From Undaria pinnatifida (lineage: Eukaryota; Sar; Phaeophyceae; Laminariales; Alariaceae), in contig JABAKD010000021.1 of assembly GCA_012845835.1 (NCBI GenBank), positions 2,741,706-2,805,705 on the forward strand: 64,000 nt of DNA, written 5' to 3'. The notes beneath the pieces are model-generated. The model was not told the DNA's origin. It saw nothing but the letters and a program-made list of their open reading frames with translations, and searched no databases. Each line of letters starts with the position of its first letter. Within the stretch, counting starts at the first letter, position 1. Below, one piece after another: positions 7,836 through 54,510 of this stretch. The position numbers and the translations under genes are program-made.

Positions 7836-7945
7836 GGCTGAAATAGGCGCAAAAAGCGGCAAAGGCCTGGCTTCCATGCACGATTATTATCTTGAGAGCC
7901 TAACGCGGCCATGGTACGGCCGCTGTTCAGCTTGTGCCAAGAGGG
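7836..7945 (+). pseudogene. Decayed copy A of ankyrin exon 3
   Basis: The translation AEIGAKSGKGLASMHDYY aligns with AEVGAKNSKGLTPLHVSC of exon 3. The bases at the expected acceptor are CG instead of AG. After the first 18 codons the ankyrin helices are unrecognisable, although TAACGCGGCCATGG still matches. It lies 208 bp before copy B. Confidence 0.8.
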
Positions 7946-8043
7946 CCTGTGATATGTTTTATAGAATTTCCACTTTTGCGTCGCACCCAAGGACTTGCTT
8001 GCGCGATCGACTCAAACTACGGTGTGCTCCGCTCGTAATATAG

Positions 8044-8170
8044 GGCCGAGGTAGTATCATGGACGCGAAGAAACAGCAAGGGCTTGACCCCCTCCGCACG
8101 TTTCAGGAACCATGCCAAAAACGCCGCTGTGTTGTACGGCGGCATGGGTGCGGCTGCTGCAAAAGGTGTG
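8044..8170 (+). pseudogene. Decayed copy B of ankyrin exon 3
   Basis: It begins GGCCGAGG at the same point as exon 3. It keeps CAGCAAGGGCTTGACCCC and CATGGGTGCGGCTGCTGC, but the reading frame is broken between these blocks by small length changes. It lies 219 bp before the intact exon 3. Confidence 0.8.
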
Positions 8171-8262
8171 CCAGCGTGTTTTTTTGTTTGTTTGTTTGTT
8201 TTTCAAGGCGTTCCCACGTCGCGTCGTCTTCCCCCGGGAATCGTTTGCTGTGCTTTGACCAG

Positions 8263-8414
8263 GGCCGAGGTGGGCGCCAAGAACAGCAAGGGACTGACCC
8301 CTCTTCACGTGTCCTGCCTGAAGCCTAATGCGGCCATGGCGCGGCTGCTGCTCCTGTGGGGGGCCGACGCAAACGCGAGGGATAAGAAGAAGCGGACACC
8401 GGAGCGTGTCATAG
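8263..8414 (+). CDS. Exon 3: ankyrin repeat 4 (intact copy of a triplicated exon)
   Basis: The acceptor is TTTGACCAG and the donor ATAG|GTGATT. Residues 95-145 read GAEVGAKNSKGLTPLHVSC, then a helix pair ending in LLLLWGADANARDKKKRTPE. This closes the ankyrin block with the typical TPxxV capping sequence. Two damaged versions of the same exon lie just upstream, near 7836 and 8044. Only this third copy keeps acceptor, donor and frame together. Confidence 0.9.
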
Positions 8415-8837
8415 GTGATTGGTTTTGGTGCTTTGAACGATGCAGGCACACGCTACGGTATACGCATGCACCATTGTTGTTTTTTGGAAAGGGGACGCAT
8501 GTTATGACAGAGGCGGCGGTTGTTTTTTGGCTGATTTTTGTTTCTGGAACGTCGGGGCTCCTTAGCCCAAAAATCGTCGGAATTTCGCTCATTTTGTTTT
8601 TGCCAACAAAACGTGTTTCGTTGCACACATATATATATATCCCTACAGACTAGATGGGATTGTTGTATCGCGGGGCAATTTTGATCTTCTCAAAAACAAC
8701 ATTTTGCCGCAGATGGAAAAAAAATGCATAGCTCCTCAAGGTCTTAGGAGCCTCAGAAAGAGCCTGAAAAAGGTACACCTCTCCACCGCAGCTCTCGTCA
8801 AGGCTCCCTCCTCCTCAATCCAGGAGCGCTCCACATA

Positions 8838-9205
8838 CCTCGCCCCGCAAAACATTTTTTTGAGTAGAAAGAGTCATTCCACGGAAGGGGTTTCACCGTT
8901 TTAGCCAAAAAAAGGTATACCCTCTGTCCGAGATTGAGATCCTCGAGCGAGGAACTACCGGTTAGTCATTAGTCAAGTAATTTCACGAGTACGTATTGAT
9001 TTAAGGCTCAGTGTTATGGTATCCCTCGCCCCGCAAAAACATTTTTTTGAGTAGAAAGATTCATTCCACGGAAGGGGTTGCACCGTTTTAGCCAAAAAAA
9101 GGTATACTCTCTGTCCGAGATTGAGATCCTCGAGTGAGGAACTACCGGTTAGTCATTAGTCAAGTAATATCACGAGTACGTATTGATTTAGTGCTATGGT
9201 ATTGG
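8838..9205 (+). repeat. Direct tandem repeat, 186-bp unit, two copies
   Basis: CCTCGCCCCGC begins at 8838 and again at 9024. The intervening bases, including the R2 end GAGTCATTCCACGGAAGGGG and CTACCGGTTAGTCATTAGTC, are nearly identical. It is a recent-looking duplication at the left end of a long R2 element. Confidence 0.88.
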
Positions 9206-9651
9206 TCTGGGAGCCTAACAAGGTCTAAGATGTGGGATTAGGACTGGATATAAAAGGGTTTCACATGCCGTTGAGGGCATGCGCGTAGCAGAAAAAGGGG
9301 GATGATGCGATTGCCTCGCAGAATTGCACGCTACTCAGTTCGTCCGCAGTGGCGTGCGTGGAGCTAACAGCAGTGGCCTGTGTGGAACTAATACAAGAAG
9401 AGCTTATCTAGTACAAGTGAGTGATCAACGTGGAACCTGCCTAGTAGAGAAATCTGCAAAGGGTGGCCTGTGTCTGTGGAACAGCCCCTTATTCTTATTT
9501 ACAAAGCGTCGTCGGCAGGACAGCCTTGAAGCTTGGTCGGGATGTGCGAGCGAATGCCTTTGAAAGAGTTTTTCGGGTGAGACAATGAGCTCCTCCTCCT
9601 GTGAGGGGCTCAGGGACTTCCTGCTGCTGCGAATCTACTGTGGGATGGCTC
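8871..9651 (+). mobile_element. R2 element, long form
   Basis: It runs from terminal GAGTCATTCCACGG to terminal CTACTGTGGGATGGCTC. Unlike most R2 copies it keeps an interior of about 340 bp (GGGAGCCTAACAAGGTCTAA to CAGCCCCTTATTC) that is shared with the long copy at 23104. Short reading frames inside look non-coding. Confidence 0.75.
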
Positions 9652-10613
9652 AAAACTGAAAGTGAAAAAAAAAAGCCGACGAACCAAACCCGTGACCTAG
9701 CTAAGTTTGCACAAAAAAAAACGTTTCATTTTGAAGAGGCAGACTCTGACGTTGTCCGACGATTTTTGAGCAAAGGAACCCCGTCATTTAGAAAAAAGAA
9801 AAAAATCACCGAAAAAAGTGTTACCGCTATGGTAGCACTCGTTTGCAGCACAGCACGAAACACCTAAAAAAAAACAGAAATGCTGACTCAGGTTGGGTTT
9901 CGTGTTTGGGAAGGCTTGCGGTCTACACTAGCTTTCGCATTAAAAACGCCCCCCCGATTTCTGTTTTTCGTGCAAAGCTCGACCTGACTCTCTTGGGTTT
10001 AGAGAGTGGCTGTTTTCCTTGATAAATGTGCCGTACTGTGTGCGAGTTTGTAAATGGAGATGCGCTGTACGGTAGAGGCGCACCCGTTTTTCCTGAGTCA
10101 TTCTTAACCCTATGGAAACGGCCAAACAATATAAAATCACGAATCGAGGTTAAATAATAACAAATGAATACGATTGGCTAAGAGCCTGCTGCGTACCCCG
10201 AAGCTGGTACCTGGGCGCAGGGAGTGCCTCCGTATGCTTTTTTCAAGGTAGAGGTCCCATTTTTCGGGAAATGGGACATCTTACTTGTATTTAGTGCACC
10301 TAAGTTCGCCAAGGAGCCAATAAGTGGCTTTTCTTTGACGGGACACTATATGTCCCATTTTTCGGCTAAGTATCCATTGGGGTTAAGGATCTTAAGCAAT
10401 GGCTCCAACAAAAGCTAACGTCGCCAATTCTTTTTTTTTTTGCCAGGAATTTTCGGCGCCCAAAAAGCTTGCCGCAACAGCTCCTGTTGTTAATTTTTTT
10501 TAGTAGTAGTAACATAAGTATTGCACCGTCAGACAATGTGCAGCATGAGTGCTGATATGTGCACTAAAAAACCAGCTTGTTTTGTCCCCGTGCAACGACT
10601 CTTTTGTTGCAAG
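9652..10613. other. Intron 3 remainder, nothing recognised
   Basis: This A-rich sequence has a short inverted TGGGACATxTTAC / ATGTCCCATTTTTCGG pair near 10255-10370 and T runs. No dispersed family or coding block was recognised. Confidence 0.4.
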
Positions 10614-11890
10614 GGCGCCTGGGAAGGGATCCGGCGCAAGAAGACGCGATTCGAGATGCCTTCCGGCAGGCCACCGCCGAAAAGAAGGCCGCCCTAGCAA
10701 ACGCCGCTACGAACGTATCCTCATCTTCATTGATCGCGGACGAAGATACTTCCAGCAACAACAACGCTGCTGGGTTGGCCTCATCTTTAGCTTTGCCCGC
10801 GGCGGCGTCAGCACGCGGCGGGAGTACTGACCACCACCAGAAACCAGTGGCAATGCGCGGCGAGATTACAGACTATCAGCAAAATTCGGCTGGATCACCC
10901 GGCGGGATTACAGACCACCAGCTAAACTCGGCGGGAATGCAACAGACCAACAGCAAGCCTCATCCACGCTTGGAAGCCCCTGGTCAAACGAGGCACTCGG
11001 ACACGCCTCCGCCCCCGCCACCTCCGCATTTACCCCCCCCGCCTCCGTACCCTACCACCGGGACTGCTGTAAAGCATGGGGGGAAGGAAGCAAGGGGAGG
11101 GGGGGAGAGGGCGGGGGGTAGGGAGGGGAGGGAGGGGAGGGGGGCGGAGGGAGCACAGGCACCGAGAGAGGTTTGTGGTTTGGCTGTGTTACCGCCGAAG
11201 CCAACATCTTGTGGCTCTGGGGGTGGGCCTCTACCCGCAGCTGTGCAGGGGGGGTGGTCGCACTCCGTTGTGCGGGATAGGATTGGAGGGGGAGATCCGC
11301 CGCGTTCTCGTCCGGTTGCGGGGGGTGGGGTTGGCGGTGCGGCGGTGCCAATGGTTTCGGTTTTATCCGAGCCGTCTAGGTGTGCAACGACGACAGCGCC
11401 TGTCGGGGAGGAGAGCGGTGCGGGCCCACCGCAGGCTCCGCGTTCAGCACCGCCAACACTAACACCGACGCTAGCAACAACACCAACACCAACATCGGCA
11501 CCAACACCCACGCCCACACCAACGCAGAAAGCAACCCCAACGCTAGAAACAACGCCAACACCAACATCGACTCCAACACCGACACCAGCACCGACACCAA
11601 CACCGACACCAGCACCAACACCAACACCAACACCAACACCGACACCGACACCAACAGCAACACTAGCGCCAACACCAACATCGACACCAACACCGACATC
11701 ACCACCGTCACCGACACCAACACCGACATCAGCACCGACACCGACAGCAACACTAGCGCCAACACCAACACCAACACCAACGTCGCCACAGTCTAGGACG
11801 TTTTCGTCAACACCAAACGTTTGTAGCGTGCGATATGGGGAACCGTTTACTTGCGGGGCGGTCGTCGCGAGCGAATACGAGCTGGAAAAG
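10614..11890 (+). CDS. Exon 4: long low-complexity linker exon
   Basis: The acceptor is TTGTTGCAAG and the donor AAG|GTAAGA. The 1,277 nt are open in the one phase that fits both neighbours. It starts with a short helix, [18 protein letters not shown]. Three imperfect repeats of about 15 residues follow (10830-10950; [26 protein letters not shown]), then a proline run (about 11007-11050), a Gly/Glu/Arg-rich stretch, and a Thr-Pro tract (11458-11790) made of ACACCAAC/ACACCGAC units. It ends with a non-repetitive tail containing [20 protein letters not shown]. It probably acts as a flexible linker. A 306-codon minus-strand reading frame over the same bases is a shadow caused by the repeats. Confidence 0.78.
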
Positions 11891-12021
11891 GTAAGACAAG
11901 GCAAGGCTTGTGTGTGTTGTAGGAGCGTAGTACGCAGGAGCTTTAGCTACATCCCAGGCGAAGCACCCACGCCCTTGATTCTAGCGGCTTGGCTGTTAGT
12001 TACATGGCAGTATTCACGACC

Positions 12022-12205
12022 TGTAGCTCAAATCGATGCGAGTCGACGAGGGAAAAAATAGCTGGAATCTTATCGCGACTCAAACGAAGACGCGTACCGT
12101 AGTGGGGAGGGGGGGGGAAGAGCCTGATTAATGGCCCCAGATCTGAGTTACCCCTAGAGAGGGAGAAGGAAAAGCAAAAGGTGCGGAGAAAAAATAGAAG
12201 GGGCG
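12022..12205 (+). repeat. R5 element copy
   Basis: It begins CGATGCGAGTCGACGAGGG and continues ACGCGTACCGTAGTGGGG, then GGGGGGAAGAGCCTG and AGATCTGAGTTACC. It lies in intron 4. Confidence 0.7.
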
Positions 12206-12435
12206 AGTAAACCAGAGCGCTAGACCATTCGATCACACGTGCGCGCTGGAAAATATAGTCAATGGTGACGATATAGTGCTCGTTGATCTTCGTCCATGGC
12301 GACGGGAGGGACCCGGAGATTAATTCTTAGAAGCGGCTGAGATGCAATTAACGCGAAAGGATTTTGATGGGTACATGGCGTTATTCCCTTGAACCTTCAG
12401 TAACAGTGGCTGGGTGACCTAGCAAATACTGCCAG

Positions 12436-12600
12436 ATGTACCACGACATTGGCGGCCCCTGCGTCAGCGGGAATGGTGGAGAGGGACCGGCGACTTTTCC
12501 AGACAACTTTCTCGTTCGGTTGCGGGGCGAGATACTTGACTCTTCGCTGGATCACTTAACGCGTGCGCAACGTTGCCCGAATTCTCATCGTAGTGATGCC
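12436..12600 (+). CDS. Exon 5: segment before the kinase; 3' end unresolved
   Basis: The acceptor ACTGCCAG joins in phase 0 after exon 4 and gives MYHDIGGPCVSGNGGEGPAT, then FPDNFLVRLRGEILDSSL. The amino acids look coding and GC content is high. The donor is not clear. Candidates are GG|GCGAGA at 12526/12527, CG|GTTGCG at 12518/12519 and C|GTAGTG at 12589/12590, but none joins exon 6 without a compromise. The reported end is the limit of plausible coding, not a chosen splice site. No domain was recognised. Confidence 0.5.
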
Positions 12601-12830
12601 AGGCTCACAAGAGCAACGCACACCGTAGCGCAAGTTCAACGTTAGCCTTCGGCTGCGGTACATGCGCCGCGAAATATAACGAACCAGTGACACGCGCTAC
12701 GCTAATGGTGGACCATGTTTTTGGCTGTAGCTCCCGGCTTGAGTGGAGCTCTAGCTTTTTCTTGGGCCCTGAAAGAGGGCACCCGAGTACCAAACCCATG
12801 GCCTAGTTTAACCAAAAAGAGCATCATCGT

Positions 12831-13072
12831 GGCGGGTGCTACGATAGAGATCCGACACATTTTTTCTGAGGTTTCTGACCTTAGGAGCTTAAGACCCCCT
12901 CCCAACAACTGATTTGGAGAAAAATATAGCTGCTGACCGAACGAAAAATCCCATAGCCTGCGTAATCAACGAGAACCACTAAAAAAAAAAAAAACGTCTC
13001 AAATTTTGGATCCCCATCATTCAGAAAACCAAAAAGCAAAAAAAAAGGCATACCTCTATCGTAGCACGCGTC
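12831..13072 (+). mobile_element. R1 MITE, full copy
   Basis: The left terminal repeat is slightly eroded (GGCGGGTGCTACGATAGAG). The right one is CTCTATCGTAGCACGCGTC. Flanks TCGT and TCGG may be a degraded 4-bp target duplication. It is followed by (TTAGTTGTGC)-type short repeats at 13150-13200. Confidence 0.85.
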
Positions 13073-14218
13073 TCGGATTGCAAAACAAGAAAGACATTTT
13101 CCGACGAAGTTTGGGTTCAGAAGCCCCGTCATTCGGAAAGTATGTATGCGCTTAGTTATGCTTAGTTGTGCTTAGTTGTGCTTAGTTGTGTGTTTAGTTG
13201 AGTTGGGGCTTAGATGGGCTTAACTGTGCTATAATAAGTGCTGCCCTCTCTCTACAGTATCCCTCTTGTCGAGTGCCGAGGCGACTTCCCTCTAAAAAAG
13301 CAGCGAAAGGCATCACACAAACGAACGATAAGGGTGGCCTTAAGAATACCTCGTCCAGACGTGTCTATGGACGTATCGCTTGGTGTTTTCACTTTTTCCG
13401 CCGTAGTCTAGAAAAAAAAATCAGCTCCTTGGAAATTCGTCCGAGGGACTGTGCTAGCTTGAGTGTTAGACGAACGCTAAGGCAGGGGGGGGGGGCGAAA
13501 GATCTAGTACTTGCAGCCTGCCCGATGAGCAGTATGTTCGTGTAACCTACGGAGATACGATTCATGATTCGCGTATGTACGAGCATTATAGGATACTTTG
13601 GTATTGGGAAAAATGAGCGGTTTCTATTGGATGATGGTGTGTTGTCAGAATGTCAGCTACCCCGCCGGAAACATGCCTTCTACGGTATGTTGAGTTCTGG
13701 GTTGATTCCGATGGGGTACGCCCATTATTTCAGTTTTCTTCCAGTCTTGTTCCAGTCTGGTTTATGCTCGCCTTCTGGCCGATCTTGACTCACCCGTCTT
13801 GGTTGTGCTAACCTACCCGGATGTACGCGACCATAATGTAATACATGATGATCAAAACCTGGGACTTCTTTTTTATCTGCTGCCACCGCGCAACCAAGCC
13901 CCCCGCATGAGGTGGGCCACGCGAGCAAGCCGACCCTGAGCATGGGTTATCCCATTAGGGGGTGCCTCCATTTTTAGTGCCGGTTTTCGAGCCACTCGCC
14001 GTCGGCAGTGACTTTGTACATCACTGAAAACAGTATTTAAGGCACTTTTTTTTTGCGAAGAGCGTAGTTTCTGACCATCCCTTTTGCGGTTTCGTAATCG
14101 CCACAAAAACAAAAAATCCCATTACACGAAATTCCCCAAAATAAACTCAAACAGGAACACAGGAGGGTCTGTTGCGTGTTTGACCGCGAACTTTCTGCAA
14201 AAAGCGAATATCTCAAAA

Positions 14219-14484
14219 GACGCATGACACGATATAGAGAGGTAGCACTTTTCGTCTGAAATTGTTTCTGAATGACGGGCGGTCCTTGACCCAAAATCGT
14301 GGGAATTTCGTTTTTGTTTTGATACCTGGTACTCGATTTTCGTTGTGTACAGGCCATGGGATTTTTGTTCCTGGTAGAAGTTTTAGTTTTTCTCCTAAAT
14401 CGGTTTTCGGGAGAGGTGTGTCTTAAGCTCCCAAATTGAGGAACCTCAGAAACTAAGTGGTGGCCCTCTATCGAGGCACGCGTC
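14219..14484 (-). mobile_element. R1 MITE, full copy, AAAA on both sides
   Basis: GACGCATGACACGATATAGA to CTCTATCGAGGCACGCGTC, in reversed orientation. The four bases before and after it are both AAAA, compatible with a 4-bp target duplication. Confidence 0.85.
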
Positions 14485-14604
14485 AAAAGTGACCGCCTTA
14501 GCCGTGGTCTTGGTCCACGGTATGATAATTTTAGCTATGGGAAGACAATCTTGGCCCCTGAGCAAGATCGTCTCACAAGGAAATCTTGGCTGAGGCAACA
14601 TCGT

Positions 14605-14690
14605 CTTAGATTTTTTTACGGGAGAACCGGTCATCAAGCTTGTGTCGGGAGGAAAAAATACAACGCCTTTTTGAGCCCGACCCTACCATG
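14605..14690 (+). pseudogene. Decayed copy of kinase exon 6
   Basis: The bases TTTTTTTACGGGAGAACC, then TCATCAAGCTTGTGTCGG, align with ATTTTTACCGGAGAAGG, TCCTCAAGCGTGTGTCGG of exon 6, followed by a shared GCCTTTTTGAGC block. Length changes destroy the frame, and no glycine loop or splice site is left. Confidence 0.7.
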
Positions 14691-14734
14691 GCAATAACGC
14701 GGTGCGACGAATGCTACTACTGTGGAGGAGCCCA

Positions 14735-14992
14735 GACGCGTGCTACGCTAGAGGTGCAACACTTCATTTATGACGCTCCTCGATTTGGGTCCTTAAGACC
14801 CCCCTCGAAAACTGACTTTGGATAAAAATGAACAGCTACAGGATGAAAAATCCCATGGGGCCTAGATACACACCGAGAATCACGCAAAAACTAAGGGGGC
14901 GTATTTTCCGACGATTTTGGTTAAGGTGAGCCCCATCATTCAGAAAACATATCAGACGAAAAGTGCTACTACCCTCCATCGTAGCATGTGCC
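14735..14992 (+). mobile_element. R1 MITE, full copy
   Basis: GACGCGTGCTACGCTAGAGG to CCTCCATCGTAGCATGTGC. It lies just after the decayed exon 6 copy. Confidence 0.85.
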
Positions 14993-15134
14993 AGCAACAA
15001 CACTTTATGTTTCTGAGGCTGCTACTCCATTGAGAAGCTCCTTAAAAAAATATATCCTTCGAAGTGTATTGATTTTTGAGTTTTTTCACGGTGGGGGTGT
15101 TGCAGGTTTGAGGGCAAAACGTTCCCGGACGATT

Positions 15135-15369
15135 GACGCGTGCTACGATAGAGGAGGTGCACCACTTTTTTTCGGAGGTTCCTCAATTTGGAAACTTAAG
15201 ACCTATCCCAAAAAACTGATTTGGCGAAAAATAAAACTGCACCATGATACCGGATGAAAAATCTTATGGTCTAAAAGTGGTCTGTTTCCGACGAATTTGG
15301 GTCAAGGAGCTCCGTCATTTCAGAAAAAAAAAACAGCCAAAAAATGCTACCTCTATCGTAGCATGCGTC
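15135..15369 (+). mobile_element. R1 MITE, full copy, best consensus
   Basis: GACGCGTGCTACGATAGAGG to CTCTATCGTAGCATGCGTC, 235 bp. The interior shows the standard order: CTCAATTTGG, CTGATTTGG, CCGGATGAAAAATC, CCGACGAATTTGGG, CCGTCATTTCAG. Confidence 0.9.
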
Positions 15370-15377
15370 CACCCACG

Positions 15378-15620
15378 TTCTTTTCTTAATACTACCCCTC
15401 ATTTTTGGAACTTAAAGCCTTTCCAAACACTGGAAACCCTTTCTGGGAAAATAAATAAACCTGCTTTATCGCGGATGAAAAAATCCCATGGCCTGGGTCA
15501 CAAGATGCGATAATCATGCAGGAAAAAAAACCCGGCTGATTTTGGGATTAAGAAGAGCCCCGTCATTTCAGAAAACAACATAGCCAAAAAATGGTATACC
15601 TCTCTATCGTAGAACGCGTC
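15378..15620 (+). mobile_element. R1 MITE, left end missing
   Basis: It begins inside the element (TTCTTAATACTACCCCTC) directly after the previous copy and ends CTCTCTATCGTAGAACGCG. Confidence 0.82.
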
Positions 15621-15621
15621 G

Positions 15622-15888
15622 ATTGAGCTCGTCACGTGAGGAACCACCGATTAGTCATTAGTCAACTATTTTCACGAGTGTATATATATATATACATTTT
15701 AAGACTAACGCATAGAAGCTTGGTCACGGGTTCTGCCAACGAATGCCTTCCAAGTCATTTTTTCGGGTGGGATATTGAGAGAGCTCTTTATCATGTTAGG
15801 AACTCAGAAAATTCTGAGAAACTGCTGCACCCCTACCGCGCTCAGAAATTTCTTAGAATCTGCTGCACCCCAAACGCGGGATGACTCT
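15622..15888 (+). mobile_element. R2 element, short form, left end missing
   Basis: GAGGAACCACCGATTAGTC, CATAGAAGCTTGGTCACGG, CAACGAATGCCTTCCAAG and a right end ACGCGGGATGACTC. A short (TA)n tract lies inside. Confidence 0.75.
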
Positions 15889-16116
15889 TTTTACGCGAAT
15901 AATAAAAAAAAGAATTCTCTACCTGATTAACAATATCACGACCTAGTTATACAACGAAAAAATTACTCCCCTCCCACGAAAGAAAAAAAGACGTCAAAAT
16001 TCCGACGATGTTTGGGTCAAGGAGCCCCTCTCCCCGCATTCAAAACGCGTTTTCCAGCCGAAAAAAGTGCTCTCTTAACACCTTTATCGCGGCATGTGAC
16101 GTGCAGGAAACGGTGA

Positions 16117-16610: not shown

Positions 16611-16615
16611 GCAAC

Positions 16616-16901: not shown

Positions 16902-17032
16902 CAACCCCTACCATAGCATGGCTTCAACGTGTTCCCTTTGGTTGCGGTACGTAGCAAGACCCTTTCGCTGGCTGTGTACCGGTGCTCAAAGTGTGAATGA
17001 ATGTGAACAGTGCCGTAATGTTGTGTTGCCAG

Positions 17033-45576: not shown

Positions 45577-45790
45577 GCCGTGTCGCGGTAGGGGCTTGCA
45601 ATGGTTGGGTCAAACGGTTCTGGCCGGTTGAGCTTCTTGAGCCCGGAACTAGCCGCGTGGAGGTATTGGTCGGATTGCGCCGGCGAATGCCTTCCAAGTC
45701 GTTTTTCGGGGATGAGGTATTGAGCTACTTATGCTAAGGAGCCCAGAAACTTCTCAGAATCTACTGCACCGCCTAACCGTGGGATGACTC
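45577..45790 (+). mobile_element. R2 element, short form
   Basis: GCCGTGTCGCGGTAGGGGC to CTAACCGTGGGATGACTC, with GGCGAATGCCTTCCAAGTCG inside. Confidence 0.78.
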
Positions 45791-46444: not shown

Positions 46445-46570
46445 ATGCGTGCAGCTGTGGAAACCCGACCGTGGTGGAAACCCGACCGTGGTTTTCAGCG
46501 TGGGAAACACGCCCAACCCTAACCTTAACCCTGCCCCCCTGGGAAATTTCTCGCGAAGAGCTCCTGTAGC
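46445..46570 (+). pseudogene. Decayed copy 1 of exon 16
   Basis: It opens GCAGCTGTGGAAACCCGACC, identical to the acceptor and first codons of exon 16, then carries a short internal duplication of GTGGAAACCCGACC. The central FLCAH codons are replaced by a run resembling CCTAACCTTAACCC. Confidence 0.85.
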
Positions 46571-46674
46571 GGAGAATTTTGTGTTGACGATCAACCGTTT
46601 TGTAGAAAGGTGGGGAAGGGCAAGTTTTGCAATCAGTAGTACGAAAGTCCTCCATCGTCACTCGACATTCATGC

Positions 46675-46760
46675 GTGCGTGTAGCTGTGTAAACCCGACC
46701 GTGGGTTCTCGGTGGGCCACGTACCTAGCCCTGGCTTTAGAGAACTCGGAAATGTTGATT
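46675..46760 (+). pseudogene. Decayed copy 2 of exon 16
   Basis: GTAGCTGTGTAAACCCGACC corresponds to the exon 16 start with the acceptor AG kept, but a TAA arises in the first codons. GGTTCTCGG and CCACGT blocks still align before similarity ends. Confidence 0.82.
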
Positions 46761-46889
46761 TAAAATCGGGAGTTAGTTCGTGTGCACTATAAAGTCGACC
46801 CTTATTGTGTAGAAGATGGGGGCGAGAAAGTCAGAGTAGGCACCAAATGTTTTGCCCCCCCCCCCCCCCCCCGCCTCTAAATGCCATGC

Positions 46890-47005
46890 GTGCGTCCGTG
46901 CAGCTGTTGAACGCCGACACTTGGTTCCGTGGAGGAAACGTGCTCGACCCTAGCGCACAAAAAACGCCGACCAACCGGGAAATTTCTGAGAACGTTATTG
47001 TAATG
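46890..47005 (+). pseudogene. Decayed copy 3 of exon 16
   Basis: GCAGCTGTTGAACGCCGACA, CTTGGTTCCGTGGAGG and AACGTGCTCGACC follow exon 16 closely. The copy is preceded by a long C run. The second half has drifted (AAAAAACGCCGACC). Confidence 0.85.
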
Positions 47006-47254
47006 GGATATGTTTTGTACACAATGATATTATGCCAATTATTGCAGCGCCGAAAGATGTGGGGGGGGAGTGAAGTCGTTTACACGAGTTTTGTTTCGTT
47101 GGCCGTGGGTTTTGTGTTGTTTCGGTGTGCGTCTGTGAATGATCGATGCTGAAGCTCATCATGTTGCCTGCACGTTATAGGACGACAAAGCTGATAAGAA
47201 TGCCATGTTTTACACCCCCCCTCCTCCCCCGCCGCCGTCACATGTCATACATGC

Positions 47255-47345
47255 GCGCGTGCAGCTGCGGAAACCCGCATTTTTGTTTTCTCGGGGGACT
47301 ACGTGTTCGACCCCAACCCCAATCCCGACCACCGGGGAAAATTCT
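47255..47345 (+). pseudogene. Decayed copy 4 of exon 16
   Basis: GCAGCTGCGGAAACCCGCAT and TTCTCGGGGGACTACGTG align with exon 16. The copy sits 219 bp before the intact exon and shares its leading CATGCGCGCGTGCAG context. Confidence 0.85.
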
Positions 47346-47482
47346 GGGAAGGTTATTGTACAGGAACGTTTTTAGTGCATGTTGATGCCAACTACTGATT
47401 TGTCGAAGGTGGAGGGGGGGTAAGTCATGGACACGAGCTTCCCCTTCCCCCGGTGCCGCCACATACGTACTCATGCCTGCAG

Positions 47483-47620
47483 CTGTGGAAACCCGACACT
47501 TGGTTCTCGGAGAGCAACGTGCTGACCTTCCTGTGCGCACACGACCTGGCACCGATTGGGGAAGGCATCAAGGTTCCTTGTCCACGGCAAAAATTGGAAA
47601 AGTGGGCGCCAGCCATTCAG
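47483..47620 (+). CDS. Exon 16: FLCAH motif exon; GC donor; last of five tandem copies
   Basis: The acceptor is CATGCCTGCAG. It reads LWKPDTWFSESNVLTFLCAH, then DLAPIGEGIKVPCPRQKLEK and WAPAIQ, phase 0 at both ends. The donor is CAG|GCAAGG, a GC site. The FLC(A/E)H....G.G....PRxxLxKxAP pattern continues the CPRLF module. Four decayed copies precede it at intervals of 219-361 bp. Only this one is open with both splice sites. Confidence 0.85.
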
Positions 47621-47784
47621 GCAAGGACGCATGCTACAAATAAACGGTGCACTTCGTCTTTTATTGGGCTTTACACGCTTGCTCCTTAAGCCGCGGCGCT
47701 ATTATATCTGGCTGCAGCTTAACCTCGATTCAGATAATCGTTTTATCTAGAAGCAGCGGGCCAACGTGACCCGATCCGCGGCAT

Positions 47785-48010
47785 GACCAGCATCTCCCGG
47801 GTCATTCGGAGCTCATCGTGTCAGGTCGGGTCGGGTCAGGAAGTGTCCAAACTCTCACGGGTCAGGCCGGATCGGGTCGGGTCGGGTCGGGTCAGAAGGT
47901 CGTTTAATCTCACCGATAGAGTCCGGTCACCCAACCCGACCCGACCCGACCCGACCCGACCCGACCCGACCCGACCCGACCCGACCCGACCCGAGAAAAA
48001 AAATCCTGAA
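47785..48010 (+). repeat. R7 (CGGGT) element
   Basis: GGTCGGGTCGGGTCAGGAAG, then TTTAATCTCACCGATAGAG and a block of about 11 CCCGA units (47934-47994). It lies in intron 16. Confidence 0.85.
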
Positions 48011-48188
48011 CAAAACGACTCACAAGTCGCAAAGGAATGCCGCTAAGGACGTACTAGGAAAAGTGCGTACCAGACGGTAGACTAAATGCAAAATAGAAAG
48101 CAGTACGATAAACCTAAAAACCGACCAAAGCCCCGATTTGAGACACGTGCTACCGTAGGGCTGGGCGATTTTTGTCTTTCGGAGCCTG

Positions 48189-48441
48189 GGTCATCCCACG
48201 GTAGAGGTTTGCACTTTTATAGCCAAAAAAAGGTGTACCTGAGCGGTTGAGCTCCTCATGCGTGGATCTATCAGTTTTGTACGATAATTTTACGAGTATC
48301 CATGTTTTACGACTTTGGTGCATAGAAATGGTCGGGTTACGCGAACGAATGTCTTCCAAGTCCGTGTTTCGCATGAGACATTGAGTTCTGCATTTTAGGA
48401 GCCCGGGAAATTTCTGCTCCAATCCTAGCGTGGGACGGCTC
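48189..48441 (+). mobile_element. R2 element, short form
   Basis: GGTCATCCCACGGTAGAGG to CTAGCGTGGGACGGCTC, with GAGCTCCTCATGCGTGG inside. Confidence 0.8.
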
Positions 48442-48539
48442 AAAAAATTGTTTGGGGGAAAACAATAGGGAGAGGGCAAACCTGATGAACACTCGCGTGT
48501 CATACCGTATTCACACAACAAAACAACGAAACATGGCAC

Positions 48540-48790
48540 CTTGAATCTCGGACAGATCACGACATAGATCATCTACATCCAGCACATCACGATCTAGATC
48601 ATGTACATAGGACAGATCACAGTATAGATCACCAACCTCGGACAGATCACGATCTAGATAACGTATATCGGACAGATCACGATCTAGATCATCTACATCG
48701 TACAGATCACGATATTAATCACCAACCTCGGACATATCACGATCTAGATCATCTGTCAGTAGATCCTGTGTCTGTCGTTCTTAGATGCTG
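48540..48790 (+). repeat. R8 tandem tract, about 47-bp unit
   Basis: CGGACAGATCACGATCTAGA, then TCATCTACATC, recurs five or more times with small changes. Confidence 0.85.
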
Positions 48791-49591
48791 GGTGCAGGAT
48801 ATCTACCTAGAGAGTACAGGTCCAACCCTGCAAGCCTTTGCTAGACCATGAAGATCGTACAGCTGCCACCCGGCAACATCAGCTAAACCTTGCAGATCTT
48901 TCCTGAATGATATAGATAATCACATGGGGATAATAGATAATCTTTCCGACGTGTGTGAGATTTTTAAAGAACGAAATTGTATTTCAACGTCGTCGCGTTG
49001 TTTCTCTGTTGAGAAGCCCCTCCAGGCAGGAAGCTTTTGACCGGAAAGTGCTTCGATATATATCGTAGTACACGTCTTGGCGCATAGAAGACACTTCCTG
49101 TTCATATCGCACCCCTCTTTCGCGAAATTGATAGTACCCCAACTCGCGCACCTCCTTTGCAAAATTACTAGTACTCCACCCGAAAAACTGATTAAAAAAC
49201 AAAATGAAATGTGCAACCCGATGAACACATCTCCTTTGTATACAGGATATTGCTAAACCCAACGTTTGCTATCACCGACACCTCCATCATGGACACGTGC
49301 TACTGCTGCAGAGGGGCACTCTGCCATTTTCAGCGCTCCCCCTCACTTGTGGAGGCCTCTAGGAGTACATGCCGCCCAAGAACTGATTCCGAGAAAACTG
49401 AAAGAGCAAACTTCGAAATATAATCCCCATGGCCAAGGTACCAAAAAATAATAGTACTTTGCGAAAAACAATGAAGGAACCCCGGGTCACTCAGGATTTA
49501 ATTTAGGTAAAAAAACGCCACCTATACCGTGTCTCTTATCCGTGCCCCTCATTGATTGAGCAACGACACACATAACACACTTGGAACAAAA

Positions 49592-49838
49592 GACGTGTGC
49601 TACGATAGAGGTAGCGCTTTTCGTCCGGGATGGTTTCTGAACGGCGGGGCTCCTTAACCCAAAATCGTCGGAAATCGGCCATTTCTTTTTTGCGTGATTC
49701 TCCTTGTGTACTTAGACCATGTGATGTTTCACCCATTAGAAGCTTATTCTTATGAAATCGGATTTTGGGAGAGGTCTTAAGCTCCCAAATCGAGGAACCC
49801 CATAAAAAGAATGGTTCACCTACATCGAAGCACGCGTC
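49592..49838 (-). mobile_element. R1 MITE, full copy
   Basis: GACGTGTGCTACGATAGAGG to CCTACATCGAAGCACGCGTC. Confidence 0.85.
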
Positions 49839-49932
49839 AACAGCATCAGCCGAAGACCTGCTGCCCATAAGACGCCTGCTAAGATAGTAGGAGCACCGCG
49901 TTTTTCCAGCGCCTTCGTCTGAAAAGGTCTAA

Positions 49933-50482
49933 AGACCAAGGCTACTACGGTATTAGTAGGGGGGATGTTCTGATGATGGTATGATTATGTTATGATTATG
50001 TTACGATAGTGTTATGATGATGTTATGATAGTGTTATGATAATGTTATGATGATGTTGTGATGGTGTTATGATGGTGTTATGGTGATGTTACGATGCTGT
50101 TACGATGATGTCATGATGATGTTATATTGATGTTATGATGATGTTATGATGACGTTATGATGATGTTTTGACGACCTTATGATGATGTTACGATAATGAC
50201 GTTACGATATACCCCAGTCTTCACTACCGGATTTGCGCTATCAATACTCGCGCGACCGACCAGATGTATCTTGCGGACGAAAATACTATAGGGAAAGTTT
50301 TTGGCGCGGCGTAGCTTTAACCATGGCGTTGCGGATTCATACGGAAAATTGTAGCAGCACCAAAGCTCAAGATAAGACCGCAACGGAACAGGGAAATCAC
50401 TCGAAGGAGTGACCCCGAGTCACCGCGAGAAAATGCGAGAGATAGTCCCAAAAGTGACCCCCCCCTACCGTACCATTGGTCT
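49933..50482 (+). mobile_element. R4 element with GATGTTATGAT minisatellite, both ends visible
   Basis: The left end GACCAAGGCTACTACGGTAT is the inverse of the right end CCCTACCGTACCATTGGTC. A minisatellite (49970-50195) sits just inside the left end, as in the 19190 copy. Confidence 0.82.
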
Positions 50483-50689
50483 AAAACCGAACGCAAACTC
50501 TGACTGCTCAAAATATAGGAAAGCGCAATTGATCAGCATTCCCGTTACCTAGCTATACAACGAATAATTCTCTAAAAACAATGTCGACACTGGGTAGCTC
50601 TTCCGCGTACAAAGCCCGGTGGGTGGGGAATGGTTTGGCCAAAAATTGACGCACAGGAAGTAGTGCTACAGTGTATGTTCCTACATTGT

Positions 50690-50815
50690 GCCGGTTAAGT
50701 AGTGCCGGTAGCCGGTATATTGCCGGTGTTTTTGCTCTGGCTGGCACATACCGGCGTTAGAGGATATATGTAGTGCCGGTTAATTAGTGCCGGTAGCCGC
50801 TATCGTGCAGATGAC
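50690..50815 (+). repeat. R12 repeats
   Basis: TGTGCCGGTTAAGTAGTGCC, then GGTAGCCGGTATATTGCCGG, with a second similar block after CTGGCACATACCGGCG. Confidence 0.65.
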
Positions 50816-50820
50816 CGGTC

Positions 50821-51000
50821 GCCCCGGTGGCGCATCAGGTTATCCTCGAGCCTGGTATAGTGAGTTCGAATCTCCCCGAGCGAGTGCATACTCGTATCAA
50901 TTCGTGGAAACTTTTTCTTGTGCACAAATTGACTTGGGGAAAACGCGAGAGCGTGAGTTAGCAACACTCGATGAAAAATCGACGAGCAGTGGGATTGCTG
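50821..51000 (+). repeat. tRNA-derived SINE-like copy 2
   Basis: The head GCCCCGGTGGCGCATCAGGT has the A-box pattern and GAGTTCGAATCTCC the B-box pattern. The body ACGCGAGAGCGTGAGTTAGC, then ACTCGATGAAAAATCGACGA, aligns with the body of 25162-25310. Stems are imperfect, so an intact tRNA is unlikely. Confidence 0.68.
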
Positions 51001-51115
51001 AACCCTATGCGTCATAAAATTTGAAGGCAAGAACCAGAAGGGGAAAAAAGGACGACACCTGTGACCACGGCTTGTCCAGAAGCTGGAAAGTACATGTGTG
51101 TGAGATAAAAAAGGT

Positions 51116-51388
51116 GACGCGTGCTACGATAGAGGTAGCACTTCTCGTCTGAAATAGTCTCTGAATGTGTCGGGGCTCCTCAACCCAAAATCGTCCGAAA
51201 TATAGGCCATTTTTGTTTTCACGATTCTCGTCGTGTACCTAGTAGGCCATGGGATTTTTCATCCGGTATGATAGCAGCTTTATTTTTACTCCAAATCATT
51301 TTTTTGGGCGGGTGGTCTTAAGCTTCGAAGCTCCGAACGTGAGAGACCACAGGAAAAAAGTGGTGCACCTCTGTCGTAGTACGCGTCG
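51116..51388 (-). mobile_element. R1 MITE, full copy
   Basis: GACGCGTGCTACGATAGAGG to CCTCTGTCGTAGTACGCGTC. An inverted R11 piece (51040-51100) precedes it. Confidence 0.87.
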
Positions 51389-51489
51389 GGTAGTTTGTTC
51401 CGGTTTGGCACATACCGGCGCTAAAGACGGACCACTGCCTTGCCTTAACCATAGCACTAGTCGCAAGACACCCCTCCCTGCGCTGCGAA

Positions 51490-51560
51490 TCTTGACGCAT
51501 ACCCAGGCAAGGCGCTGTGGTATTGCATGGCAAAAAAGATTGACAACCAAAGCCGGGTTT
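51490..51560 (+). pseudogene. Decayed copy 1 of exon 17
   Basis: CTTGACGCATACCCAGGCAA followed by GGCGCTGTGGTATTGC resembles GTAACGCACAGGCAA, GCGCGTTTGTGGTGC at the exon 17 acceptor. The upstream CCCTCCCTGCG tract is shared as well. Confidence 0.6.
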
Positions 51561-51859
51561 TGACGCACAAAAAACGTCTCTACTGACACCAACGCCCCTC
51601 CCCCCATCTCGGCCTACCGAATAACCGGAATACGCCCCCCCCCCCAAAAAAAAACACTTGCAACGACGCATCGATCCAAACCTCCGCTATCTGGACGACT
51701 CCCCTCGTGTTAGAGGCAACCTAGTCTTGCCGATGAGGCCTATTATAGAGGTATCAGAGGGCTTTCATCTGTTTCACACCGCTGGTAAAAATACTAAAAC
51801 CGATTGACTACCCAATCTAAGGCTTACAGCATCCCTCTGCCTCACGTTTGGGACAACGT

Positions 51860-51900
51860 GCGTTGTCTAAGAAAGCGCGGTTTGCGGCACCAAAAATAGT
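51860..51900 (+). pseudogene. Decayed copy 2 of exon 17
   Basis: A short block, AAGCGCGGTTTGCGGCACC, aligns with AAGCGCGTTTGTGGTGCGCC of exon 17. The surrounding pyrimidine-rich lead (CACCAATGCCCCCCCTCTCC) is shared between copies. Confidence 0.45.
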
Positions 51901-52016
51901 TAAACTACGACACACCAAGACCGATTATTTTAGGAACAAACACGCCTCTTTACACCAATGCCCCCCCTCTCCCTGCGTCTCATCTATCAAACAAATGGCA
52001 TTGGCGTAACGCACAG

Positions 52017-52136
52017 GCAAGCGCGTTTGTGGTGCGCCTGGGCTGTAAAGCCGCGTGCATGACGGCTGGAGTGACACCGGCCGCTGTAGACGGCATGTCG
52101 GCGGCCTTAGGGATCAACTTCCTCGCTGGACAACAG
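52017..52136 (+). CDS. Exon 17: helical hydrophobic exon of the C-terminal module
   Basis: The acceptor is AACGCACAG and the donor CAG|GTAACA. The 40 codons are phase 0 at both ends and read ASAFVVRLGCKAACMTAGVT, then PAAVDGMSAALGINFLAGQQ. It is Ala/Gly/Val-rich and probably forms packed helices. Two diverged pieces of the same exon lie at about 51490 and 51860. Confidence 0.8.
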
Positions 52137-52504
52137 GTAACAATGATGCCAGAAAGAAGAAAACTGCGTACTGCTTCGGTGCCCAGTATCTGAACTGCAT
52201 TTCCGTGCTTCTGCGTTTGCATATCGCGTATCTTATCGGAATCAGACTATTCCAACAATCCGATCCGACCTGACAAATATCGGATTTGTTTGTCGGATTG
52301 TCGGGTTTATATGCCCTTATCGAGCCGGCATCGAATGTCGTCCCGATATGAAACACTATCAGGTAGAGACGACCCCATGAACCCCATAAAAATAATACAA
52401 CTTTTTGTTTTCGTGACTAACTGATCGGAGATAGAGAGGACTGTTTTGGCGGCGGTCAAATGCCTAAAGCGCAGCTGTCGTTACCACCCCTTGCTTTCCC
52501 CTGT

Positions 52505-52570
52505 CCTGGACTACCTTAGGTTTCCGCAGCGCTTCGCCCCGCTACAGACGAGGCTCTTGGTGATGTGTAA
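52505..52570 (+). pseudogene. Decayed copy of exon 18, upstream
   Basis: GTTTCCGCAGCGCTTCG, then CCCCGCTACAGACGAGGC, matches the first 40 bases of exon 18 and keeps an acceptor-like CCTTAG. The frame meets TAA soon after. It starts 200 bp before exon 18. Confidence 0.75.
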
Positions 52571-52719
52571 ATATCGGATTGTTTGTCGTCGAATATCGGG
52601 TCCCCAGGCCTTTATCGGATCGGAATCGATTATCGTTCCGATATGAAACATTAGACACGATCGTAAGGCGCCGCCGTCGTCGCTGCCCCTTGCCTTGCCC
52701 TGCTTTGCCTCGCCCGAAG

Positions 52720-52849
52720 GTTTCCGCAGCGCTTCGCTCCGCTGCGGGCAAGGCCCTCGGCGACGTCGACGACGGAGGAGAGGGAAACAATCGCTTCGCT
52801 GGCGCGTCGGCAGACGCTGTAGACGAAAGGGAGGGTCGAAAACTGACAG
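52720..52849 (+). CDS. Exon 18: small helical exon
   Basis: The acceptor is CGCCCGAAG, in a pyrimidine-rich context, and the donor ACAG|GTGGGA. It reads VSAALRSAAGKALGDVDDGG, then EGNNRFAGASADAVDEREGR and KLT plus one base. The leftover G joins GA at the start of exon 19. The exon is one unit of a four-copy tandem array of about 190-200 bp; the other copies carry stops or lost sites. Confidence 0.72.
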
Positions 52850-52984
52850 GTGGGAGCGAGGGACAACTCCCAAGTTGTTTTTAGCTCTTTGGCTGGGCCT
52901 ATTTTGGCGCTGATGTCCTGTAAAATACACTGTGACACCTACTTCGTGATACATACCTGGTATTACGCTTCGCTTACAACATTC

Positions 52985-53060
52985 AGTCGTCGGGGGCGGT
53001 AGACGCTGTAGACGAAGGAACGGGAGGTCGAAAGCTCCCGGGTGAGCACGATCAAACCAG
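52985..53060 (+). pseudogene. Decayed copy of exon 18, downstream 1
   Basis: GGCGGTAGACGCTGTAGACG, then AAGGAACGGGAGGTCGAAAG, matches the second half of exon 18, about 190 bp after it. The first half of the exon is not recognisable. Confidence 0.7.
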
Positions 53061-53169
53061 CCTTCGCTTTTGTATCGGCACATGTCCTAACGCCGATTTC
53101 CACACGCATATGTCGACACTTAATTTTTCCATAAATACAACGCTTCCATTGCAATAATCAGCTGTCGGT

Positions 53170-53250
53170 GGAGGGAAGGGGGGGGGCGTCGGTAGATGGC
53201 GTGTTACGAAGAACAGGGGGGCTGGTCGAAATGTGGTGAATGAGCTCGAT
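53170..53250 (+). pseudogene. Decayed copy of exon 18, downstream 2
   Basis: GTCGGTAGATGGCGTGTTAC, then GGGGGGCTGGTCGAAATG, follows the same part of exon 18 and lies about 193 bp after the previous copy. It is more diverged. Confidence 0.6.
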
Positions 53251-53554
53251 CGAAGCAACGCTTGCCTTGGTGCTGGGTGCATGGTTCTGGCGCTGATTTT
53301 GTTCACTCATGATTACACATACCCATATACTTACAGTACAAATGTGCGACGACGCGTGCTGATCCCGTGCCAGCGACCCGACATTCAAGAGAAGCGTACC
53401 GCCGGGCTCTTGTAAAACGTCGGAATGATGATTTTAATCGGTTCTGGTTCGTAGACGGACTGTGTGCGTACTAATTGCATCGCGTTCACTAACTTCCACG
53501 TTCATGGGAGACGAGATAAACTTGCCTCGGCGTGTTTTCGTTACAACGATCGCT

Positions 53555-53650
53555 GTCCTTCAGAAAGAAGGCGTAACCACGCCCTTTTAGAGGTTCCGGA
53601 CCAGACGGTGTCGTCGTGGAGAGCCAATTTTGTTGCGCGAGACATCTTCT
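53555..53650 (+). pseudogene. Decayed copy 1 of exon 19
   Basis: AACGATCGCTGTCCTTCAGA, then AGAAGGCGTAACCACGCCC, matches the acceptor and start of exon 19. TCGTGGAGAGCCAATTTTG and GCGCGAGACATC extend the match. A TAA interrupts it and the GAGGTGCGG donor region is missing. Confidence 0.8.
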
Positions 53651-53937
53651 ACTCATTGGGATTTTTTTTTGTGGGTGATCAGATGATAAAGATAATGCTG
53701 CACGTTATCGAATGGCGACATCAATGATAGATTCACGTGCCCAGTATGTTGACCATTTAGAGCAGAGAACCAGAGGTACTGCAGTGCCAGAAAATTGACT
53801 GTGTGTGAGAGAAAGGGCTTGCTCCCCTCCCACGTCCCAGGGCCCAAAATAGGCATCCAGGAGATTGTTCTTGTATACTCGTTCGGGATAACACCAAAAC
53901 CCAGCGCACTCGCCAGAGAGCAGATGTAGTTGGGAGT

Positions 53938-54192
53938 GGTTCTACGGTAGCCCCCCCAACTTTTCTTTAACGAAGTCGCCTGTTTTGAAACCACACCTCC
54001 CGGCCGTACCTCCTGAAATACGGTGGCCCTTGCCACCACCCCGAGGTCATCGATCGGTCGATAGTCCTTCCTTTGCAACCAAGGAAACACATGGAGAATT
54101 TTTTTTCATAGCATCCTTCCTCGTGTCGAGCAGCGCCATAAAACGTTCGTTAAAAAGAAAATCGTCGGTTTTGGGGGGGGGCTATCGTAGAA
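53938..54192 (-). mobile_element. R3 element copy, clean ends
   Basis: TTCTACGGTAGCCCCCCCAA to GGGGGGCTATCGTAGAA. It lies between two decayed exon 19 copies and so is younger than their duplication. Confidence 0.85.
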
Positions 54193-54224
54193 ATCAGTCT
54201 TTGCACAGGTCACGTGTGGCCGAC

Positions 54225-54325
54225 TCTGCCACGAGCAACGAGGAATCTCGACACCAAGCTCTTGTGTCGTTCCTGGATGAGTTTGTCCCGCTTTGGAGAA
54301 CGACCTTGGCACGGGACATCTTTTA
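54225..54325 (+). pseudogene. Decayed copy 2 of exon 19
   Basis: It reads RHQALVSFLDEFVPLWRTTL, against YHALVEFLDETAPSWRAIL in exon 19, then ARDIF and a stop. It is the best-kept relic but has no donor. It lies 167 bp before the intact exon, just after an R3 element. Confidence 0.85.
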
Positions 54326-54406
54326 ACCTCGTTGGATTTTTGTTTTATAAGCGATCGTTGAAGGATGACAAGCAATGTTTCCGTTCTAACGATCGCCACC
54401 CGGCAG

Positions 54407-54510
54407 GAGAGGCGTACCACGCTCTCGTGGAGTTCCTCGACGAGACAGCCCCTTCGTGGAGAGCTATTCTTGCGCGGGGCATGACCAAAGCTATCCGGGA
54501 GGACGGAGAG
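54407..54510 (+). CDS. Exon 19: YHALVEFLDE exon
   Basis: The acceptor is CACCCGGCAG and the donor GAG|GTGCGG. It reads EAYHALVEFLDETAPSWRAI, then LARGMTKAIREDGE. It follows exon 18 in phase 1. If GTGCGG were not used as a donor, reading would stop at a TAA 21 bases later. Splicing instead restores DGEVSWTCHEH with exon 20. Two decayed copies lie upstream, at about 53555 and 54225. Confidence 0.82.

What the first reader, a model, noticed from the sequence alone, without database searches (positions are those of the whole stretch)
7836..54510. Exon graveyards: many exons are preceded by decayed tandem copies of themselves
Decayed copies of exons 3, 6, 13, 16, 17, 18 and 19 (and probably 14) lie in the adjacent introns, often at about 190-230 bp spacing, a length near one exon plus flanks. 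In most cases only the 3'-most copy keeps acceptor, donor and frame. This points to repeated local duplication of exon units followed by loss of all but one. It could be a way of turning over or swapping exons. I know of no description of such a pattern along one gene.
Basis: partly seen in the sequence, partly recalled or inferred. Interest (0 to 1): 0.88.

Follow-up and report, generated by a model that had tools for sequence, protein, structure and literature searches.

The report
Broken exon-edge copies in long introns
Seven exons of a long algal-looking gene have decayed partial copies of themselves in a neighbouring intron, most simply explained by short tandem DNA duplications that hit exons and plain introns alike, rather than by a special exon-swapping system.

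Summary
The relics are real. In a 19-exon model of an ankyrin-kinase gene, 7 of 17 exons tested match their own flanking intron clearly above shuffles: E2, E3, E5, E12, E15 and E18 upstream, E14 downstream, 13 relics in all. Reversed and reverse-complement exons reach at most 14, non-adjacent introns 16; the seven score 18-43.

The interpretation needs changing. Relics are partial. Exon parts missing beside them are absent, not just decayed, in 11 of 14 end tests by simulation. For E3, E15 and E18, upstream relics lack the exon's 3' end; the downstream E14 relic lacks its 5' end. A tandem duplication with one breakpoint inside the exon predicts this. On that reading the copy never had its second splice site. 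E2 and E5 relics are internal fragments and fit less well.

Exon-free sequence carries similar local duplications: 13-15% of unique random segments against 35-41% of exons. Slower exon divergence could account for that excess, though this is argued, not measured. An ordinary process, densely recorded.

The parts
3110..56459 (+). Host gene, 19-exon model, 1225 aa: ankyrin repeats (E1-E3), Pro/Thr-rich exon (E4), protein kinase (E5-E12), unassigned C-terminal region (E13-E19)
   Evidence: Frame-consistent assembly; Pfam Ank_2 1.8e-23, Pkinase 4e-20; C-terminal part no Pfam hit. No RNA evidence.
6461..6516 (+). E2 relic (matches exon positions 18-65 of 171)
   Evidence: score 18 vs 11.6 shuffled, z 5.1; 66-171 absent
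7836..7928 (+). E3 relic r2 (exon 1-91 of 152), acceptor AG lost, net frameshift
   Evidence: E 6e-8, z 14.7; 92-152 absent
8044..8160 (+). E3 relic r1 (local match exon 9-51 at 8060-8104, second piece exon 68-89 at 8139-8160), AG kept
   Evidence: E 1.6e-4; second piece p 0.001; start read from letters
8263..8414 (+). Intact E3
14613..14676 (+). E5 relic (exon 50-112 of 132), internal fragment 2.4 kb upstream
   Evidence: E 1.9e-5, z 10.4; both ends absent
17033..17164 (+). Intact E5
36229..36325 (+). E12 relic r2 (exon 23-109; acceptor AG kept, gaps near the 5' end)
   Evidence: E 8e-10
36430..36528 (+). E12 relic r1 (exon 23-110; acceptor AG kept), followed by a hexamer array
   Evidence: E 3e-13, z 25
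39613..39732 (+). Intact E12
44465..44621 (+). Intact E14
46215..46316 (+). E14 relic, DOWNSTREAM of its exon (exon 91-157 plus about 30 nt of intron; 5' end absent)
   Evidence: z 8.2; extends to +30 past the donor; 1-90 absent
46455..46475 (+). E15 relic r4 (exon 1-22; homology from -9)
   Evidence: E 1.4e-4 with flank
46685..46722 (+). E15 relic r3 (exon 1-38; homology from -8)
   Evidence: E 5e-5
46904..46949 (+). E15 relic r2 (exon 1-45; homology from -4)
   Evidence: E 1.4e-4
47265..47312 (+). E15 relic r1 (exon 1-45; homology from -41)
   Evidence: E 9.6e-7 with flank
47483..47620 (+). Intact E15; positions 46-138 not detectable beside any of the four relics
52807..53099 (+). Weak E17 relics r2 and r1, about 190 bp apart, covering the whole 40-nt exon and both splice-site positions
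   Evidence: r1 E 2.3e-4 with flanks; r2 by similarity to r1 and alignment
53196..53235 (+). E17, 40-nt exon inferred only from the phase gap between E16 and E18
53569..53645 (+). E18 relic r2 (exon 4-76; homology from -30), AG kept
   Evidence: E 2.6e-7
54253..54319 (+). E18 relic r1 (exon 10-76)
   Evidence: E 1e-4
54407..54510 (+). Intact E18

Best explanation
The relics are by-products of frequent short (mostly about 80-300 bp) tandem duplications in this genome that fall without regard to exons. When one breakpoint falls inside an exon, one copy is born truncated: upstream and without a donor if the right breakpoint is in the exon, downstream and without an acceptor if the left one is. 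The complete exon stays on the other side, so splicing tolerates the event. The truncated copy, with its slice of intron, can be duplicated again into a small array, and then decays. Shown here: the relics, their locality, direct orientation, partial extent, and local duplication of the same kind in exon-free sequence. Inferred: that events were single tandem duplications with a breakpoint in the exon, that selection removes duplications leaving two complete exons, and that end-joining after staggered breaks made them.
For: Partial extent: in 11 of 14 end tests (strict scoring) the missing exon part scores as chance and a homologous piece would score that low in at most 0.2% of simulations; E12r1 3' (3%), E18r2 (2%) and E18r1 (15%) have less power. 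End points within one exon agree in part: E12 110 and 109, E18 76 and 76, E15 45, 45, 38 and 22, E3 91 and, as a second piece, 89. Geometry: E3r2, all four E15 relics and E18r2 have homology starting before the exon and lack the 3' end, and lie upstream; the E14 relic lacks the 5' end, runs past the donor position, and lies downstream. Stretches after position 45 of the E15 relics are homologous to each other in 4 of 5 pairs tested while the exon's own remainder is not. Generic process: exon-free local duplications, e.g. 20830-21174, 31300-31934, 52465-52766, 58663-58910. Random unique segments have a local partner in 13-15% of cases, exons in 6-7 of 17; raw binomial p 0.009-0.027, but 0.17-0.29 if the chance of detection is doubled for a slowly changing exon. 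Mismatch rates at codon positions 1 and 2 are alike (48/255, 52/260, p 0.82). Three near-exact young duplications have 0-2 bp beyond two copies.
Against: E2 and E5 relics are internal fragments (18-65 and 50-112); a single tandem duplication giving an upstream copy should keep the exon's 5' end, so a later deletion must be assumed. E3r1 and E18r1 matches also start inside the exon (9 and 10). E17, if real, was duplicated whole. The stretches after the two E3 relics show no homology to each other (p 0.23). Third codon positions differ more (78/257; three-way p 0.003): expected from silent change in the exon, but also if some relics were constrained for a time. The raw exon excess is nominally significant and the doubling is an argument, not a measurement. 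Upstream bias 6 to 1 is unexplained, though not significant. A deletion before an array grew could mimic truncation at birth. The simulated divergence was set from the matched, hence better kept, part. No transcripts; one window; no genome held.
Confidence: 0.72

Rival explanations
1. One reading: whole exons with both splice sites are duplicated again and again, and all but one copy decays, as a way of turning over or swapping exons.
For: Several relics keep the acceptor AG (8 of 9 that I could score, 5.8 expected, p 0.11); the E17 relics cover the whole short exon; third-position excess of mismatches.
Against: The rest of the exon is absent beside E2, E3, E14 and E15 relics despite ample power; no complete spare exon among the seven families.
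Confidence: 0.11
2. Relics are alternative or mutually exclusive exons still in use.
For: 11 of 13 aligned relics have no stop within the aligned blocks; E15r3 and E18r1 have no indel either.
Against: One end of the exon is missing; net frameshift in 9 of 13; codon positions 1 and 2 differ at about 19-20%.
Confidence: 0.03
3. Relics are pieces of a paralogous gene or TE-captured fragments inserted here.
For: Introns hold many short inverted-repeat elements (36 terminal-motif matches); the E5 relic is an isolated internal fragment.
Against: Each relic lies in an intron touching its own exon and in direct orientation, four exons have serial relics, and there are no comparable hits in other introns. 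Not tested against a genome.
Confidence: 0.07
4. Chance or low-complexity similarity.
For: The E13 and E16 claims fall here; E4 matches are low complexity, also in reverse.
Against: Shuffles, reversed exons, reverse complements and non-adjacent introns give nothing comparable for the seven exons; E2 is the weakest of them.
Confidence: 0.01

Closest known systems
Tandem duplication across an intron-exon boundary, potato RdRp gene (PMC4974935; abstract and passages seen)
   Same: [quoted passage not shown] direct and adjacent; the same gene also has an 83-bp duplication inside an intron.
   Different: There the duplication is recent and gave a new intron; here the copies are old, decayed, often serial, and at several exons of one gene.
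Exon duplications with degenerate intronic copies as searched by Exonize (PMC12343006; part 1 of 3 of the text seen)
   Same: Exon copies found by searching exons against the introns of the same gene, degenerate ones included.
   Different: That work centres on full-exon duplications (about 4-7% of vertebrate genes); here copies are partial and touch 7 of 17 exons of one gene.
Exon shuffling of LRR exons in brown algal ROCO genes (PMC11378527; abstract, outline and passages seen)
   Same: Perhaps a similar lineage (my untested inference); local exon duplication in a signalling gene.
   Different: There each shuffled exon encodes one repeat motif and copies are functional; here relics come mostly from non-repeat exons, kinase exons included, and look dead.
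Small tandem duplications from end-joining at breaks with 3' overhangs (PMC8355091; abstract and outline seen)
   Same: Short tandem duplications; three near-exact young ones here have 0-2 bp overlap.
   Different: Shown in mouse and human cells; the mechanism here is inferred.

Membership tests
Full tandem exon duplication | Whole exon copied | tested here: not met
   E2, E3, E5, E14, E15 copies partial; E12 and E18 probably partial (less power); only weak E17 is whole
Full tandem exon duplication | Copy within the same gene, in an adjacent intron, direct | tested here: met
Partial tandem duplication across an intron-exon boundary | Segment spans intron and part of an exon | tested here: met
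   E3r2 -8..91, E15r1 -41..45, E18r2 -30..76, E14 91..+30; E2 and E5 not shown to cross a boundary
Partial tandem duplication across an intron-exon boundary | Contiguous head-to-tail units | tested here: inconclusive
   E15 units homologous to each other in 4 of 5 pairs, E18 p 0.009, E3 p 0.23; E5, E12 and E14 relics lie 1.7-3.2 kb from the exon
Partial tandem duplication across an intron-exon boundary | Gain of a new intron or exon (as in the potato case) | not testable with these tools
   no RNA data
Mutually exclusive exons | Copies keep both splice sites and frame | tested here: not met
   one end missing; net frameshift in 9 of 13
Mutually exclusive exons | Copies used in transcripts | not testable with these tools
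   no RNA data
Repeat-exon shuffling (brown algal ROCO) | Each exon encodes one protein repeat of fixed length (72 bp in ROCO) | tested here: not met
   Relic-bearing exons are 104-171 nt; Pfam repeats only in E2 and E3 among them
Dispersed repeat | Copies elsewhere in the window | tested here: not met
   best non-adjacent score 16 against 18-43 for the seven

The most novel reading that the evidence does not exclude
Exon edges in this genome are duplicated more often than introns, building arrays of acceptor-bearing, donor-less exon heads in front of working exons; these could act as decoy 3' splice sites or as a reservoir for new exon starts. The evidence does not exclude a real exon bias (raw p 0.009-0.027), an upstream bias (6 of 7) or retention of acceptor AGs (8 of 9, p 0.11).
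Probability: 0.08. Interest if true: 0.75.

Novelty: new member of a known kind. Interest (0 to 1): 0.38.

Why it matters
A conserved exon is a slow clock beside neutral DNA. Its truncated copies record old short tandem duplications that intron-intron pairs may already have lost to decay. If the density seen here is usual for this genome, exon-edge relics give a way to measure short tandem duplication rates and breakpoint positions far back in time, and to ask whether selection removes duplications that leave two complete exons. It also warns annotators against calling such relics exons.

Tried and rejected
Homologues elsewhere: the search for related loci with a 350-aa part gave 12 pattern stretches but no relative in genome contigs and nothing in viral contigs; the terminal-repeat motif had no exact match in viral contigs. 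The kinase part matches 169 PDB sequences, all that were shown being kinases (best 60 listed), which says nothing about the relics. So no paralogue or orthologue comparison was possible. One large duplication from inside E14 to inside E15 was considered, because the E14 relic sits just before the E15 array. It predicts an E15 head between E14 and the E14 relic; none was found (score 11 vs 9.5, p 0.15). Permissive-gap alignments align almost anything and were not used to judge relic ends, except to read off the acceptor letters of E12. E16 relics by multiple alignment did not pass the shuffle test upstream. E12 drops out of the 3-kb control (exons 5 of 16, 6, 5 and 5 of 17 at thresholds 16-22, P 0.05-0.26); I widened the radius to 3.5 kb knowing this, so that comparison leans toward an exon excess. 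E4 and E19 were left out of exon counts (low complexity; last exon). Random control segments: 1500 drawn, relic regions avoided, those with a distant match dropped (709-895 kept). Local arrays built of short units, such as 43797-44458 and 48545-48754, I do not count as evidence for ~200-bp duplication. Three end tests include intron flank (E2 5', E5 3', E12r1 3'); E12r2's 3' end was not tested there; E12 1-22 against r2 gave p 0.032. Literature: seven searches listed no paper on decayed copies of many exons along one gene, by title and abstract start; most subscription papers are not held.
Full report
Setting. No whole genome is held for the window. Sequence character (long introns, many short inverted-repeat elements) suggests a brown alga; that is my inference and was not tested. 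I built a plus-strand gene model of 19 exons, 3110-56459, from splice sites and reading frame. It gives 1225 residues without an internal stop; introns are 1.06-6.67 kb. Pfam finds ankyrin repeats (Ank_2 1.8e-23) and a protein kinase domain (4e-20); the region after the kinase has no Pfam hit. E17 (40 nt) rests only on the phase gap between E16 and E18.

The observation. I aligned each of 17 exons (E4 and E19 left out) with its upstream and downstream intron and compared with 200 dinucleotide shuffles of that intron, with the reversed exon and with the non-adjacent introns. Seven of 17 exons stand out: E2, E3, E5, E12, E15 and E18 upstream, E14 downstream (scores 18-43; shuffle means 10.0-11.8; best reversed exon 14; best non-adjacent intron 16; reverse-complement exons at most 14). 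Three further sides have p below 0.05 in 34 tests (E3, E16 and E6 downstream, scores 14-15) and were not counted. BLAST adds further relics, 13 in all: E2 one, E3 two, E5 one, E12 two, E14 one, E15 four, E18 two. E17 has weaker support.

They are partial copies. Best matched parts are exon 18-65 of 171 (E2), 1-91 of 152 (E3), 50-112 of 132 (E5), 23-110 of 120 (E12), 91-157 of 157 (E14), 1-45 of 138 (E15) and 4-76 of 104 (E18). I then asked whether the rest of the exon is merely decayed. In 14 end tests under strict scoring none of the missing parts scored above chance (lowest p 0.11). In 11 of 14 a copy mutated to about the divergence of the matched part would score that low in at most 0.2% of 1000 simulations; E12r1 3' (3%), E18r2 (2%) and E18r1 (15%) have less power. 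Under permissive scoring the lowest chance p values are 0.078 (E18r1) and 0.082 (E12r1). In an earlier run E12 1-22 against r2 gave p 0.032, so that end may be present. Relic ends agree within E12 (110, 109) and E18 (76, 76), partly within E15 (45, 45, 38, 22), and for E3 if the second piece of r1 is counted (91, 89). After position 45 the E15 relics resemble each other (p 0.001-0.005 in 4 of 5 pairs, 0.20 in the fifth) but not E15 (p 0.24-0.92); the stretches after the two E18 relics are alike (p 0.009), those after the two E3 relics are not (p 0.23).

Geometry. A tandem duplication whose right end falls in an exon leaves an upstream copy without the exon's 3' end and donor; one whose left end falls in an exon leaves a downstream copy without the 5' end and acceptor. 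E3r2, the four E15 relics and E18r2 fit the first form, with homology starting 8, 4-41 and 30 nt before the exon, and E14 fits the second. E12 fits the first less surely: its relics keep the acceptor AG but have gaps near the 5' end. E2 and E5 are internal fragments and need an extra deletion. So most relics probably never were whole exons, and 'loss of all but one' is not needed. The upstream excess, 6 of 7, is not significant (two-sided p 0.125).

Decay and arrays. Relic-exon identity is 67-95%. Mismatches by codon position are 48/255, 52/260 and 78/257: positions 1 and 2 are alike (p 0.82) and the third is higher (three-way p 0.003). Free drift of the relic plus silent change in the exon gives that, but early constraint on some relics would too. 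Net frameshifts occur in 9 of 13 relics; 11 of 13 have no stop in the aligned blocks. In E12 the two relics share 16 differences from the exon against 9 seen in one relic only, so a dead copy was itself duplicated. In E15 the heads are star-like (0-1 shared differences in six pairs). E3 (3 shared against 15) and E18 (5 against 26) relics separated early.

A general process. Local duplications are also common where there is no exon. In 120-bp tiles with no distant match, local partners occur in 9/31, 8/32, 6/32 and 4/32 exon tiles and 77/392, 75/442, 77/484 and 76/532 non-exon tiles (relic regions excluded) at thresholds 18, 20, 22 and 25 (from the scan). With length-matched random segments and a 3.5 kb radius, exons give 7/17, 6/17 and 6/17 at thresholds 18, 20 and 22; random unique segments give 107/709, 116/804 and 114/895; raw p 0.009, 0.027, 0.015. 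A first run with a 3 kb radius, which misses E12, gave P 0.05-0.26. The flank beyond the gene (56460-64000) has a similar density: 14/101, 22/125 and 21/147. Offsets near 170-300 bp also occur without exons, so the spacing need not be an exon length. Near-exact young duplications 58663-58910, 57173-57338 and 55275-55318 have 2, 0 and 0 bp beyond two copies; 8838-9190 holds less than two full copies and 63691-63888 is only 89% alike, so I do not use them. This is compatible with end-joining, a route shown in mammalian cells (PMC8355091, abstract and outline).

Known work. [quoted passage not shown] A potato gene shows a tandem duplication crossing an intron-exon boundary, and a second inside an intron (PMC4974935, abstract and passages); that paper cites Gao and Lynch 2009 for internal duplications being common (not held). 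Brown algal ROCO genes show shuffling of repeat exons (PMC11378527, abstract, outline and passages), a different thing. In Ectocarpus introns are long and rich in degraded transposable elements (PMC12477816, passages). I conclude: a real and dense but probably ordinary record of short tandem duplication, read by the first stage as an exon system.

Noticed in passing
window, introns after E6, E8, E10, E15: Four of 18 introns in the model start with GC instead of GT (gcgagt, gcgaga, gcaagt, gcaagg), a high share if the model is right.
   Followed up: no
window, 36 places: Terminal motif GACGCGTGCTACGATAGAGG occurs 36 times on both strands with up to 3 mismatches, chance 0; nine plus/minus pairs 235-286 bp apart look like a short inverted-repeat transposon family in the introns.
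   Followed up: partly
window 36470-36910: Relic E12r1 runs into a 56-copy hexamer array and a 146-aa open frame ([28 protein letters not shown]...) that, by eye, keeps the exon's own reading frame at its start.
   Followed up: partly
window 26398-26653: 51 copies of CGGGT, with related short tracts at 17575, 47858 and (ACCCG) 47929.
   Followed up: no
window 25160-25235 and 50815-50885: By eye, tRNA-like box A and box B text (ggttcgaacccc; gagttcgaatctcc), perhaps tRNA-derived short repeats; ARAGORN and Rfam report nothing.
   Followed up: partly
window 4227-4416 and 6253-6434: A 193-bp pair at 73% identity 2 kb apart in intron 1, without exon content.
   Followed up: no
window 9589-9609, 52798-52825, 24559-24578: Short downstream matches to E3, E16 and E6 (scores 14-15, p 0.01-0.03 in 34 tests), too weak to count as relics.
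   Followed up: no
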